35,822 bases of DNA from Candidatus Zixiibacteriota bacterium (GTDB lineage: Bacteria; Zixibacteria; MSB-5A5; WJJR01; JAJRUJ01), in contig JAGVQM010000028.1 of NCBI GenBank assembly GCA_020051695.1, positions 1-35,822 on the forward strand. The letters are read 5' to 3'. Positions 17,568 through 35,822 of the stretch are shown one piece after another. The position numbers and the translations under genes were made by a program. Under the pieces are notes generated by a model that was given only the letters and a program-made list of their open reading frames with translations, had not been told where the DNA came from and searched no databases. Each line of letters starts with the position of its first letter. Position 1 is the stretch's first letter.

Positions 17568-19724
17568 ATGATAACTGCCGAAGATGTCCTTTCGTTTTTT
17601 TCCGGCCCCCGGGGCCGGCCATGCAAGCGGCGCGAACTTGCCCGTGAACTCGGTGTCGATAATCGGGAGTACACTGCATTTCGCGGAGTGATCCGTGAAC
17701 TGATTAAGTCCGGCCGCGTGGTTAAACTCAAGCGCGGCCGGCTGGCCCCGCCCGATCCGTTGAACCTCGTAGTCGGCACCGTTTCACTCAAACCGCAGGG
17801 CTTTGCGTTTGTCCATGTGGAAGACCGGCCGGACCTGCCCGAAGTGTTTGTCAAAGCCCGCCGAACAACCACCGCGTTGGACGGCGACCGGGTGATGGTC
17901 CGGTTGTTGCCCCTGGCGGATGGTCCTACCCCTGAAGGCGAAATCATCCGCGTGATCGAACGGGCGGACAAGCCGCTGCCGGGCATCTTCGGCAAAACGA
18001 AATTCATATCCTATGTCCGGCCCACGCCGCCGTCGCCGATTACCGAGATTTATATCTATCCCGACCGCACCAAAAAAGCCAGACCGGGACAGCAGGTCCT
18101 GGTGCGCATCGATGAGTGGCCGGCGGCCGATCTCACGCCGGAAGGGCATGTCACCAAAGTCCTCGGTTTCCCCGATGAGCCGGGTGTGGATATCCAGCGC
18201 GTGATTCACGAACATAACCTGCCGCTCAACTTCCCCCGGCGGGTATTGGCTGAAGTCCGCACCTTGCCCGCCGAGATTACCGCCGGCGAATTGGAAGGCC
18301 GCCGGGATTTCCGCGAGACGATCACGTTCACCATTGACCCGGAGGACGCGAAGGATTTTGATGATGCCGTCTCGCTGGAGGAAACACTGGATGGCTGGCG
18401 GATCGGCGTGCATATTGCCGATGTCGCACACTATGTCCGGCCGGAAACTGCGCTGGACCGTGATGCCTATGAGCGGGGGACCAGTGTCTATCTGGTTGAT
18501 CGTGTCGTGCCGATGTTGCCGACACGGTTATCCAATGATCTGTGCAGCTTGAAACCGAAGGTCGACCGGTTGACCATGAGTTGTCTGGCCGAGATCACCA
18601 GGGACGGGGAAGTCCGAAATTTTGAATTATTCAACTCGGTGATCCATTCCCGCGCACGGCTGAACTACAAGCAGGTCATGCAGTTTTTTGTGACGGGGGA
18701 ACCCGGTCGCATACCGGCCGCTGTTGCCGATAAGCTGACAATCATGCGCCGGGCCGCCGGTGCGCTGCGTGACCGCCGGTTCAAGTTGGGGAGTCTGAAC
18801 CTGGAACTGCCCGAGGTGAAAGTGATCCTCGACCCACAGGGCGTGCCGGTCAGGATCGAACAGGAGACCGGCGATGAATCTCATTGGGTCATCGAGGATT
18901 TGATGCTGATGGCCAACCAATGTGTGGCCGCCTATTTCCTGCGCAAAACCGCGCCGCTGTTGTATCGCATTCACGCCGCGCCCGAGCGGGAAAAGATCGA
19001 GGAATTTGCCGGTTTCGTGCAGCAACTCGGCTATCGTTTTTCGCCTAAGGGCGGCCTGACCACCAGAAAGCTCGGCCGCTTGCTGGACCAGTTTGCCGCC
19101 GACCCGCGCCGCCATATGATCTACATGCTGTTGCTGCGATCGCTGAAAAAAGCGGAGTACGCGCCGGATAATGTCGGGCATTTCGGCCTGGGGTTCAGCC
19201 ATTATTGCCATTTCACCTCCCCGATCCGCCGGTATCCCGATTTATGGGTCCACCGCCATTTGAAGCTGCTGCTGGCCGGTCAATTGAGCGTGACGCAGAA
19301 AAAGCGCGCCCATGGCGATCTGCCCGCGATTGGCCGCTGGACTTCCGAGCGCGAGCGCGCGGCCATGGAAGCTGAGCGTGAATCGGTCCGGATCAAGCAA
19401 ATGCAATACCTCGGCAATCATCTCGGAGACGAGTACCAGGGTGTCATCTCCGGTTTCCTCGATTTCGGTTTTTTTGTGACGCTGGATGATGTCTGGCTGG
19501 ACGGGCTGGTGCGATTTTCGGGAATTGACGACGATTACTATGCGTACAACCCGGAACGTTTTAAAGTGACAGGCCGGCGCCGGAACCGTACTTTCTCTTT
19601 GGGTGATCAAGTGCGGGTGCGGGTGATCAAAGTCGATATGGAGCGGCGGCAGGTCGACCTGATCATGGCTGACGCCCCGCTGGAACAGTCAACCCGGCGC
19701 CGCTGGAGCAGGCAGGGACGATAG
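17568..19724 (+). CDS. rnr: Ribonuclease R
   Basis: A 718-residue processive 3'-5' exoribonuclease of the RNase II/R family that degrades structured RNA. An N-terminal winged-helix (about 1-70) precedes cold-shock domains (about 70-240). The RNB catalytic domain contains DPEDAKDFDDAVSL with the metal-binding aspartates, then DRVVPMLPTRLSNDLCSL and HYCHFTSPIRRYPDL. A C-terminal S1 domain (about 625-705: GVISGFLDFGFFVTLDD ... VIKVDMERRQVDLIM) and a short basic tail follow. The tail is shorter than the Lys-rich tail of E. coli RNase R. GTGGAAACCAG precedes the ATG. A sigma-54-type regulator starts 16 bases after its stop. Confidence 0.95.
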   Translation: MITAEDVLSFFSGPRGRPCKRRELARELGVDNREYTAFRGVIRELIKSGRVVKLKRGRLAPPDPLNLVVGTVSLKPQGFAFVHVEDRPDLPEVFVKARRTTTALDGDRVMVRLLPLADGPTPEGEIIRVIERADKPLPGIFGKTKFISYVRPTPPSPITEIYIYPDRTKKARPGQQVLVRIDEWPAADLTPEGHVTKVLGFPDEPGVDIQRVIHEHNLPLNFPRRVLAEVRTLPAEITAGELEGRRDFRETITFTIDPEDAKDFDDAVSLEETLDGWRIGVHIADVAHYVRPETALDRDAYERGTSVYLVDRVVPMLPTRLSNDLCSLKPKVDRLTMSCLAEITRDGEVRNFELFNSVIHSRARLNYKQVMQFFVTGEPGRIPAAVADKLTIMRRAAGALRDRRFKLGSLNLELPEVKVILDPQGVPVRIEQETGDESHWVIEDLMLMANQCVAAYFLRKTAPLLYRIHAAPEREKIEEFAGFVQQLGYRFSPKGGLTTRKLGRLLDQFAADPRRHMIYMLLLRSLKKAEYAPDNVGHFGLGFSHYCHFTSPIRRYPDLWVHRHLKLLLAGQLSVTQKKRAHGDLPAIGRWTSERERAAMEAERESVRIKQMQYLGNHLGDEYQGVISGFLDFGFFVTLDDVWLDGLVRFSGIDDDYYAYNPERFKVTGRRRNRTFSLGDQVRVRVIKVDMERRQVDLIMADAPLEQSTRRRWSRQGR

Positions 19725-21256: not shown

Positions 21257-22918
21257 ATGAAGATGGAAATCATTTATGAGTTTTTAAAGGGTCTAGTTAG
21301 TCAGCAGTGGCATTATATCTTTCTTGTTCTAATTATCATATTATTTGGTTTTGTCCGCAAGAAAAAGGAACTTCTAAAAATATTCAAAGACAGGTGGTTT
21401 TGGATTCCTAGTATTATATGTCTGCTACTTTTCGGCGTCTTTCAAGTCATTCATCTGTTTCCACCACAAATGCCTAAAGACAAACTCGTCGTAGCCATTG
21501 CGCGTTTTACCCCGATAAGTGAGGGGGCTGAAGACGAGGCGGCCAACATTACTCACCGCATAGACCAAGGATTGCAACAAAAAATGAGGGATGGGGCGCC
21601 ACTAAACGTCCTACCCCTCTCCAGTAAAGTCGATTACGGCGGAGATGAGCAGATCAGGCGGCAAAAAGCGATCGATCTTTGTCGGGATCAAGCTAATATC
21701 ATATTATGGGGTGATGTCCGATTGGATGAAGGAGAATCTTATATACTACCTCGGCTTACAGTGGTGAAAGAAATGCAAAACGTTGATATTGAGGAAAAAG
21801 AACTCGACCCATTTGTGACCACTGAGCCGAAGCACTTGGAATTTAAAGAGCGATTATCGGAAAATATCGCTGATATTGTCCTATTAGTGCATGGGCTGGC
21901 ATATTTTAACGCAAATATGTGGGATCGTTCTCTGGAAATCCTCCGCCATTCTAACCTATCTGAGTCGAATTTTTATAAGGGACGATGCTACTTTGAGCGA
22001 GCGATGCAAATAGAACCCCCGGTACCGCTTTTAGATTCTGCGATAATGCAATATGACAAGATTTTAAATGATTCTGCGCGATCAGCAAATAGTTTTTTTG
22101 TGTCATCCTCATTTAATCGGGCGATTGCACTGGCTCAAAAAGCGGCCAATTCAACAGATTCCATATCTTTAGCTTGCCTGATCGAATCGGCCAATACATG
22201 GAAATCGGGTTTAAATGCTTTCTCTGAATCAAAATACCCGCATGAATGGGCCGTAATTAACGCCAATCTTGGAAGTGCCTTGTTTGAGCTGGCCTTACGT
22301 TCTTCTGAATTTACCCGCGTGCAATATCTTTTTGGCGCAAGAGAGTCCTATTCCGACGCGCTACGCTTTTTTACCAAGTCCAACTGGCCTCTTGAGTGGG
22401 CCAGACTCCATAGAGGGATTGGCAATGCATCAGCTCTTTATGGTGCGACGTTTTTCTTTGGAAATTGTACTGAGTCCAATGAGGAGGCTCTAGATCATTA
22501 TGATTCAGTGTTGACCGTCTACAGCAGAGGCCATATGCCATGGGAATGGGCCACGACACAATTCTATATCGGAAAATCTTATCATTTGATGAATAACTGC
22601 ACTTTTGGTGAGGACGCGGCGCATTATCTGCCGCTGGCCCTCGAACACCTTCAAGACGCCCTAACAATTTGCACACGCGAGAGATATCGATCCGATTGGG
22701 CAATGATACATACTGAGTTAATCTTCGTCTACTTTCAAATTGCTGAACGTGATTCTGGTCAGTCTAGAAAAGAATATTTTAATTTGGCGGAAGAAAGTGC
22801 AAACTGTGCTCTTTCATATTATGATTCAACAAAATACCCTAAAGACTTTGAAATAATTAATGATATGAAATCGAGTATTGTCCACTTGAGGGATTCTTTG
22901 GCTAATACGACACCTTGA
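21257..22918 (+). CDS. Membrane-anchored TPR protein with FlgO/TolB-like domain, AT-rich
   Basis: A 553-residue protein of unknown function. Two hydrophobic helices (about 18-34 and 48-66) flank a basic loop. About 75-185 resembles the FlgO/TolB-N-type fold often found before TPRs (KLVVAIARFTPIS ... ANIILWGDVRLDEGESY). About 200-540 holds repeats with a P-x-x-W-A core: YPHEWAVINANLGSAL, WPLEWARLHRGIGNA, MPWEWATTQFYIGKS, YRSDWAMIHTELI. This is the TPR variant common in cyanobacteria and NACHT-type proteins. Codon and base composition is clearly more AT-rich than both neighbours, suggesting acquisition. The ribosome site is weak. It may be a scaffold for protein contacts; partners are not visible. 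Confidence 0.75.
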   Translation: MKMEIIYEFLKGLVSQQWHYIFLVLIIILFGFVRKKKELLKIFKDRWFWIPSIICLLLFGVFQVIHLFPPQMPKDKLVVAIARFTPISEGAEDEAANITHRIDQGLQQKMRDGAPLNVLPLSSKVDYGGDEQIRRQKAIDLCRDQANIILWGDVRLDEGESYILPRLTVVKEMQNVDIEEKELDPFVTTEPKHLEFKERLSENIADIVLLVHGLAYFNANMWDRSLEILRHSNLSESNFYKGRCYFERAMQIEPPVPLLDSAIMQYDKILNDSARSANSFFVSSSFNRAIALAQKAANSTDSISLACLIESANTWKSGLNAFSESKYPHEWAVINANLGSALFELALRSSEFTRVQYLFGARESYSDALRFFTKSNWPLEWARLHRGIGNASALYGATFFFGNCTESNEEALDHYDSVLTVYSRGHMPWEWATTQFYIGKSYHLMNNCTFGEDAAHYLPLALEHLQDALTICTRERYRSDWAMIHTELIFVYFQIAERDSGQSRKEYFNLAEESANCALSYYDSTKYPKDFEIINDMKSSIVHLRDSLANTTP

Positions 22919-34447: not shown

Positions 34448-34494
34448 CAGGCCGAGTCTTTTCCGTCATTTCTTTTATCCATCAGAAATTGGCC

Positions 34495-34667
34495 GTGGCT
34501 TCAGCCACAGTTTACGCCGCCTCATGTCATTCCGGGCTTGACCCGGAATCCAGACATACCGTGGCACGGGCATCTTGCCCGTGCATGAGCAAGCCGATAC
34601 GGCCATGCTCATGATAGGGACTTTTTCAGCAAGCCCAAAGCTGTGGGGCACCCGGCAAAGCTCCGGG
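34495..34667. repeat. Cluster of short palindromic repeats
   Basis: The spacer after the D,D-carboxypeptidase holds a row of inverted repeats. These are GTGGCT-TC-AGCCAC (34495-34508), ATTCCGGG-CTTGA-CCCGGAAT (34529-34549), GCACGGGCA-TCT-TGCCCGTGC (34564-34584), ATGAGCA...TGCTCAT (34585-34612) and CCCGG-CAAAGCT-CCGGG (34651-34667). The second and third resemble palindromic intergenic repeats dispersed in many bacterial genomes. None has a T tract like a standard terminator. The surrounding 34448-34704 has no gene I can support. Confidence 0.65.
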
Positions 34668-34704
34668 CCACGCCAGCCGACACACGCCAATCGGAGACCC
34701 ACTA

Positions 34705-35724
34705 TTAGTTCACCAATTCCGCTGGTGTGGCAATCCATCTACCCCTGTCCTGATGGATTACAAGAGTACTGCCGAATTCAGGCAAAGTTATTTTGAATGA
34801 TCCCTTTTTCTCAAGAAGGTCACGGACCTCATTTCGTCTCTGGTAAAGATGTTTAATGAACTCTTTGAACAAATTGAATAACATGTCCCACGTCTCATAT
34901 TTCATAACAAAGCCTTCTTTTTCTCCCCCAATATTCGGTGCATTTGAAATCATTCCATGTTCAATTAAAAAATCACTGTGAACGAAATGATTCCGTACAA
35001 CATTATAATATAAAGCGTCAAGCACTTTGCCGACCGCAAAACCCGCGGAACATGCCTCTCGAATAATCGATGTCCATGTGTTGCCTGTCTTTTGGTTTGA
35101 ATCGAGTATAAGCCTTGGGTTATATTTCTTCCCCTTCGCAATTTTGATTAATGACCAGATCAATCTCTGTATCTCTACACATTCCCACAATTGGCTATAG
35201 GCCAAGATTTGGTTCCATCTCAGAAAGGTCGCGGTGCTTTCATCGTGTACTTTTGGATCTTGATCGACAAAGCCAAGAAACTGATTGAATTGATTGATTA
35301 TCCAAAATCTTGTATGATCATTGGTTATATGGGCTTTCCCCATCATATATTCGCGGCTGACATCAATGACGGCTAAGTATACGCGCTCTTGTGATTTCTT
35401 GATTGCTCTTTCGAATAACTCAGCCACTGCCTGTTTTACGTCCGGGCTGGAAACGAATGCGTTTTGAAAATCCTCATCAGTTATTACTTTGTGTTTGGGG
35501 ATTTCAATTGGTATCTCGGCGAGCGAGATTAGGAATTTATTATGTTCTTCTTGATCTTGTATGTAACACCTCTCGCAGTCCGCAGCCCTTCTGAACCTAA
35601 TCATATTGCTGATATCTCCACGTATATAAGCAGAACGAGCTAATGCTTCATATGCATATGAGAGAGAAATGCCGCGCAATCCGTTATCGAGGCAATATTC
35701 AACAGCTTTTTAAGCATATTCAGA
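34705..35724 (-). pseudogene. 5'-truncated AT-rich gene of unknown function, interrupted by an IS element
   Basis: The open part (34705-35709) encodes about 335 residues with no ATG start. The first residues after an in-frame TAA (35710-35712) read KAVEYCLDNGLRG, then SYAYEALARSAYIRGD. This resembles, from memory, a helical repeat segment that normally continues upstream. On the other side of the stop the frame continues as SEYA and then meets the IS end. The loss therefore combines an insertion with one nonsense codon. The C-terminal part has VVRNHFVHSDF, an Rx4H arrangement typical of HEPN domains, within a helical region. An internal TTG at 35679 could still start a shorter product. Composition is AT-rich, unlike the core genome. 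Function unknown. Confidence 0.6.
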
Positions 35725-35822
35725 GAGTGTGTCCGGAATTTTGTGTAAGCGACCGGTTCACGTTGGTTCGAACCTTCCCTCGAACATAATGCTGAAATGA
35801 TTCAAGGCCGCAACCCAATCTT
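35725..35822 (-). mobile_element. End of an IS256 (Mutator)-family insertion sequence, partial
   Basis: On the minus strand the window begins inside a transposase gene: the last 20 codons (35820 to the TGA at 35758-35760) read DWVAALNHFSIMFEGRFEPT. This matches the conserved C-terminus of Mutator-type transposases (W..ALN.F.I.FE.R). Beyond the stop lies TTACACAAAATTCCGGACAC (35729-35748), like an IS256-family terminal inverted repeat. The exact outer edge is uncertain by a few bases (35722-35731). The other end and the target duplication lie beyond the window. The element interrupts the AT-rich gene described next to it. Confidence 0.72.

What the first reader, a model, noticed from the sequence alone, without database searches (positions are those of the whole stretch)
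34705..35822. IS256-family element has cut the 5' end off an AT-rich gene with a HEPN-like motif
The same minus-strand frame shows a transposase C-terminus, its stop, an IS256-like inverted repeat, then SEYA, a TAA and KAVEYCLDNGLRG. The last part resembles the interior of a helical domain, not an N-terminus. So the host gene lost its start, and the first codons after the junction also carry a nonsense codon. The remaining protein has an Rx4H motif (RNHFVH), which in HEPN proteins marks RNase or toxin activity, so an inactivated defence gene is possible.
Basis: partly seen in the sequence, partly recalled or inferred. Interest (0 to 1): 0.6.

Follow-up and report, generated by a model that had tools for sequence, protein, structure and literature searches.

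The report
Transposon-split gene with RNase-like motif
A bacterial gene that probably encoded an RNA-cutting protein (possibly a defence or toxin gene, unproven) was split in two by a common jumping element and also carries a stop codon; the missing half was found on another contig, so this is an ordinary gene-inactivation event in a little-known protein family.

Summary
The window is a whole contig (C28) ending 98 bp inside the right end of an IS256-type element. The missing half of the gene sits at the end of contig C4: ATG, 83 codons, then the same 8-bp target duplication (TCTGAATA), then 99 bp of the IS left end. So the IS interrupted the gene; it did not delete its 5' end. A profile of a small helical (TPR-like) family spans the junction: 51.7 bits on the C4 half, 20.5 on the window half, 86.8 jointly over 150 of 153 positions. 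The TAA four codons past the junction is a second lesion inside that domain. The remaining 262 residues form a separate domain found standalone in Zixibacteria, Alphaproteobacteria, Bacteroidota and one viral contig, with RNx3H invariant in all members aligned. No Pfam, NCBIfam or PADLOC model matches the window protein. HEPN membership is supported by the motif and a weak profile match with good controls, but not by fold search. A defence role is unproven. The fusion was not seen elsewhere. Overall: ordinary IS inactivation of an AT-rich, probably acquired orphan gene in a HEPN-like family absent from the libraries searched.

The parts
35725..35822 (-). Right end of an IS256-family insertion sequence (last 98 bp; transposase C-terminus 35820-35761, TGA 35760-35758, right terminal inverted repeat about 35725-35755)
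   Evidence: Identical end at the starts of contigs C13 and C27; 21 of 30 positions match the IS left end on C4; sister left end on C3 encodes a PF00872 N-terminus
35717..35724 (-). Target site duplication TCTGAATA, right copy; the left copy is at the end of contig C4 (18166-18173)
   Evidence: a second copy of the element shows its own 8/8 duplication TGATTTGC (C13 end / C27 start)
35710..35712 (-). In-frame TAA nonsense codon, inside the N-terminal helical domain
   Evidence: the domain profile aligns across it in frame
35515..35709 (-). Second half of the N-terminal small helical (TPR-like) domain; first half is C4:17923-18171
   Evidence: Family HMM: 51.7 bits (C4 half), 20.5 bits (window half), 86.8 bits joined with X at the stop, model 1-150 of 153
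34708..35493 (-). C-terminal HEPN-like domain, equivalent to standalone proteins of about 260-340 aa elsewhere
   Evidence: Homologues; alignment A4
34978..34995 (-). RNHFVH motif (Rx4H, followed by SDF)
   Evidence: R, N and H invariant in the 14-sequence alignment A4
34705..35679 (-).
   Evidence: no homologue begins at either codon

Best explanation
This is a pseudogene. The original horizontally acquired gene encoded a two-domain protein of about 418 codons: an N-terminal helical, TPR-like domain of about 150 residues, fused to a C-terminal HEPN-type domain of about 260 residues. An IS256-family element transposed into codons 84-86 and duplicated TCTGAATA. This left an 83-codon 5' remnant on C4, whose stop is formed at the IS junction, and a 3' remnant in this window that also carries a TAA four codons past the junction. 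Shown: insertion, duplication, both halves, the fusion, the nonsense codon and the conserved motif. Inferred: that the intact protein acted as a metal-independent RNase through RNx3H, with the helical domain as sensor, adaptor or restraint, in a growth-arrest or defence setting. The order of the two lesions is unknown.
For: The same 8-bp duplication stands at C4's end and at the window's end, with matching IS ends. One protein-family profile runs continuously through both halves. C4 has the natural start: an AGGAG upstream of the ATG at 17923. The C-terminal domain has homologues with invariant R-N-x3-H. Profile comparison with PF18735 HEPN proteins of the same phylum scores 29.0 with RNxxxH in register; 60 column-shuffled controls reach at most 17.1, reversed controls 12.9-14.2, motif-masked 17.4. 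HEPN definition (Rx4-6H, polar residue after R, RNase activity): PMC3710099. The 8-bp A/T-rich duplications are typical of the IS256 family: PMC7780238.
Against: The HEPN assignment is not confirmed by fold: AlphaFold models (pLDDT 69 and 81) gave no significant Foldseek match. The profile match is weak (probability 14.6, E 0.0018 for one comparison) and rests mostly on the motif. No consistent defence neighbours were seen. The remaining 334 codons carry no further stop, which fits recent inactivation but also a retained product. The joint was inferred from contig ends, not read across.
Confidence: 0.78

Rival explanations
1. The C-terminal domain is still made: IS read-through transcription plus an internal start (ATG 35604 or TTG 35679) yields a truncated HEPN-like protein, equivalent to the standalone homologues.
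For: Transposase and remnant lie on the same strand; 334 codons stay open with the motif intact; standalone homologues exist; a GGAG lies 11 nt upstream of the ATG.
Against: Homologues begin at about 35480, where the window has no ATG, GTG or TTG; the available starts lie inside a broken helical domain; no promoter-like site was found at the junction; an unrestrained RNase might be harmful.
Confidence: 0.12
2. The TAA was the natural end of a short upstream gene and the downstream part was always a separate overlapping gene, so only the IS is a lesion.
For: The HEPN-like domain is standalone in all relatives found, and the small helical family is standalone in all other genomes found.
Against: The TAA falls in the middle of the small helical domain, whose profile continues in the same frame for about 65 codons beyond it and runs open into the HEPN-like domain.
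Confidence: 0.05
3. The TAA is an assembly or sequencing error of the contig and the IS insertion is the only lesion.
For: It is a single codon with the frame kept on both sides; the genome is fragmented (43 contigs) and reads cannot be inspected.
Against: No direct evidence of error; the codon lies outside the repeated IS sequence.
Confidence: 0.1
4. The C-terminal domain is not HEPN; the RNx3HSDF motif is a structural or other catalytic signature of an unrelated helical family.
For: No Pfam or PADLOC hit for the window protein; no fold match.
Against: In-register profile match above all controls; one member has a sub-threshold PF18735 hit covering the motif and one a sub-threshold RTasHEPN hit; motif and helix placement as in HEPN.
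Confidence: 0.25

Closest known systems
IS256-family insertion sequences (copy-out/paste-in, e.g. ISCth4, PMC7780238)
   Same: PF00872 transposase N-terminus on a sister copy, imperfect inverted repeats with a TGTAA-type subterminal motif, 8-bp A/T-rich target duplications
   Different: No full copy is assembled in this genome; only ends and a degenerate copy on C3
HEPN superfamily RNases (PF18735 HEPN_RiboL-PSP the nearest found)
   Same: RNxxxH motif, polar residue after R, following long helix, weak in-register profile match
   Different: Below every curated cut-off; no fold match; larger domain with extra N-terminal helices and C-terminal strands
LA2681 HEPN family (fused to or in operon with TPR, per PMC3710099)
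   Same: TPR-like plus HEPN-like architecture
   Different: PF18733 finds nothing in this genome; profile comparison shows only the motif in register, E 0.24; the helical domain is a different family
Uncharacterised small helical family (about 153 aa, no Pfam match above cut-off), e.g. C41:47566-48024
   Different: All other members found are standalone proteins

Membership tests
IS256 family | Transposase of the mutator type (PF00872) | tested here: met
   Sister copy on C3 with the same left end and MVDKRDE start hits PF00872 at 28.2 bits, cut-off 21; the inserted copy itself is only 98 + 99 bp of ends
IS256 family | Imperfect terminal inverted repeats | tested here: met
   21 of 30 positions identical between the ends, core TTTTGTGTAAG
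IS256 family | 8-bp A/T-rich target duplication | tested here: met
   TCTGAATA (C4/window) and TGATTTGC (C13/C27), 8 of 8 each; third copy without a match
HEPN superfamily | Rx4-6H motif with N, D or H after R | tested here: met
   R, N and H invariant in 14 aligned members
HEPN superfamily | Profile similarity to a known HEPN family | tested here: inconclusive
   hhalign 29.0, E 0.0018, probability 14.6; controls at most 17.4; sub-threshold PF18735 hit of one member
HEPN superfamily | Four-helix bundle fold | tested here: inconclusive
   Helical model, pLDDT 81, motif at a helix followed by a long helix, but no Foldseek match
HEPN superfamily | Ex3[K/R] second motif | tested here: not met
   An invariant E lies upstream, but with no K/R at +4 in most members; this motif is not universal in HEPN (PMC3710099)
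HEPN superfamily | RNase activity | not testable with these tools
   Needs a bench assay on a homologue
HEPN_LA2681 (PF18733) | Pfam profile match | tested here: not met
   No match in the window's genome, none in Pfam scans
Anti-phage defence system | Match to a PADLOC model or consistent defence neighbourhood | tested here: not met
   PADLOC: none for the window protein; neighbours of homologues vary, a few suggestive (TIR, KAP NTPase, NTase-HEPN)

The most novel reading that the evidence does not exclude
The C-terminal domain founds an undescribed HEPN-like RNase family, present as solo genes in several phyla, that in this lineage had been fused to a small TPR-like domain acting as its sensor or restraint. 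The double inactivation would be a case of a toxic gene being silenced.
Probability: 0.3. Interest if true: 0.45.

Novelty: new member of a known kind. Interest (0 to 1): 0.27.

Why it matters
The insertion itself is routine. Its value is as a worked example: an apparent truncation at a contig end was resolved into a clean IS insertion with both halves and duplication recovered. It also points to a HEPN-like family missing from Pfam, NCBIfam and PADLOC, with intact homologues that could be tested for RNase or anti-phage activity.

Tried and rejected
Single-sequence scans of genome and viral collections found nothing; alignments were needed. Pfam, NCBIfam, PADLOC and PHROGs gave no significant match. 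PDB sequence searches were empty. Foldseek on two models, PDB and viral libraries, was negative, so the fold could not be settled. LA2681 HEPN was considered because of its TPR fusions and rejected. An outward promoter at the IS junction was sought and not found. Programmed frameshifting was considered and rejected because both sides of the TAA are in the same frame. A constant partner gene was sought and not found.

Full report
Observation. The window is the whole contig C28 of a 3.5-Mb, 43-contig genome. The last 98 bp are the right end of an insertion sequence that also begins contigs C13 and C27. This explains why the assembly stops here.

Finding the other half. A 74-residue query from just after the TAA weakly matched an intact 153-aa paralogue at C41:47566-48024. 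Searching with that paralogue hit the end of contig C4 and the window's end, covering residues 9-88 and 86-137 respectively. The C4 end reads: AGGAG, ATG at 17923, 83 codons, TCTGAATA at 18166-18173, then 99 bp beginning AGGGGTGTAAGTATTTTTGTGTAAG with a transposase start MVDKRDETDKLI. The window side reads ...CCGGACACACTC then TCTGAATA. The two IS ends match at 21 of 30 positions. A second copy (C13 end / C27 start) has its own perfect duplication, TGATTTGC, so the pairing by duplication is internally controlled. A third pair of ends (C12 start / C13 start) shares no 8-mer.

Proof that it is one gene. An HMM of the small helical family, built from relatives in other genomes of the phylum, scores 51.7 bits on the C4 half (model 1-81), 20.5 bits on the window half (model 95-150) and 86.8 bits on both together with X at the stop (model 1-150 of 153). 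The TAA at 35712-35710 therefore lies inside this domain and in frame. The gene has two lesions: the insertion and the nonsense codon.

The C-terminal domain. Relatives were found in other Zixibacteria (G001, G101, G119, G125, G130), Alphaproteobacteria (Kaistia, Chelativorans, Cohaesibacter, Agrobacterium and Rhizobium plasmids), Bacteroidota (Aquiflexum, Saprospiraceae, Hymenobacter plasmid) and one viral contig. The Zixibacterial homologues begin at the equivalent of window position about 35480, so none supports the TTG at 35679. None found carries the small helical domain, and none of the small helical relatives carries this one. Within this sample the fusion is unique to the window's genome.

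Is it HEPN? R, N and H of RNx3H are invariant in 14 aligned members, which fits the HEPN active-site definition in PMC3710099. Profile comparison with PF18735 proteins from the same phylum aligns the motifs and the next helix: score 29.0, against at most 17.1 in 60 column shuffles, 12.9-14.2 reversed, and 17.4 with the motif masked. So the match rests mainly on the motif. One member has a sub-threshold PF18735 hit that includes its motif. AlphaFold gives a mainly helical domain with the motif helix followed by a hairpin and a long helix (pLDDT 81), but Foldseek finds no HEPN structure. I take HEPN-like RNase as probable (about 0.65-0.7), not shown.

Defence? PADLOC does not match the window protein. 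Neighbourhoods are inconsistent. Suggestive cases are TIR and KAP NTPase genes and NTase-HEPN genes nearby (as annotated; by my reading of the ORF); other homologues sit among unrelated genes. On C4 the neighbours look like ordinary chromosomal genes: a ComM-type chelatase, M16-type peptidases and a probable DNA ligase (my reading of the ORFs, not tested). The split gene is AT-rich (0.405-0.45 against 0.57), consistent with acquisition.

Verdict. The event is ordinary; the family is a modest lead.

Noticed in passing
21257-22918 (+): Second AT-rich gene (region GC 0.42-0.45), 553 aa with an N-terminal membrane segment and TPR-like repeats by eye, between a sigma-54-activator-like gene and a Ppx/GppA-like phosphatase gene.
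   Followed up: no
G000 C12 start / C13 start (L131, L024): Third copy of the IS has left flank AATTGGCC and right flank GCCAGAAT, with no shared 8-mer: a sign of recombination between copies, adjacent deletion, or additional unassembled copies.
   Followed up: partly
L007 (C3:15231-18440): Degenerate relative of the same IS: intact left end and transposase N-terminus, then a truncated frame of about 100 codons.
   Followed up: partly
34526-34552 and surrounding 34480-34700: Intergenic palindrome-rich stretch (GTCATTCCGGGCTTGACCCGGAATCCA) between the split gene and the convergent D-Ala-D-Ala-carboxypeptidase-like gene; only one copy in the window.
   Followed up: partly
L102:2280-2846 (-): In G125 a 188-aa gene lies directly upstream of the HEPN-like gene on the same strand, end to start; a possible operon partner not seen with other homologues.
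   Followed up: no
C41:47566-48024 (L097): Small helical family of about 153 aa with conserved YEALARA and LATI segments, matched in 17 of 98 related genomes at E <= 0.001, without a Pfam match above cut-off.
   Followed up: partly
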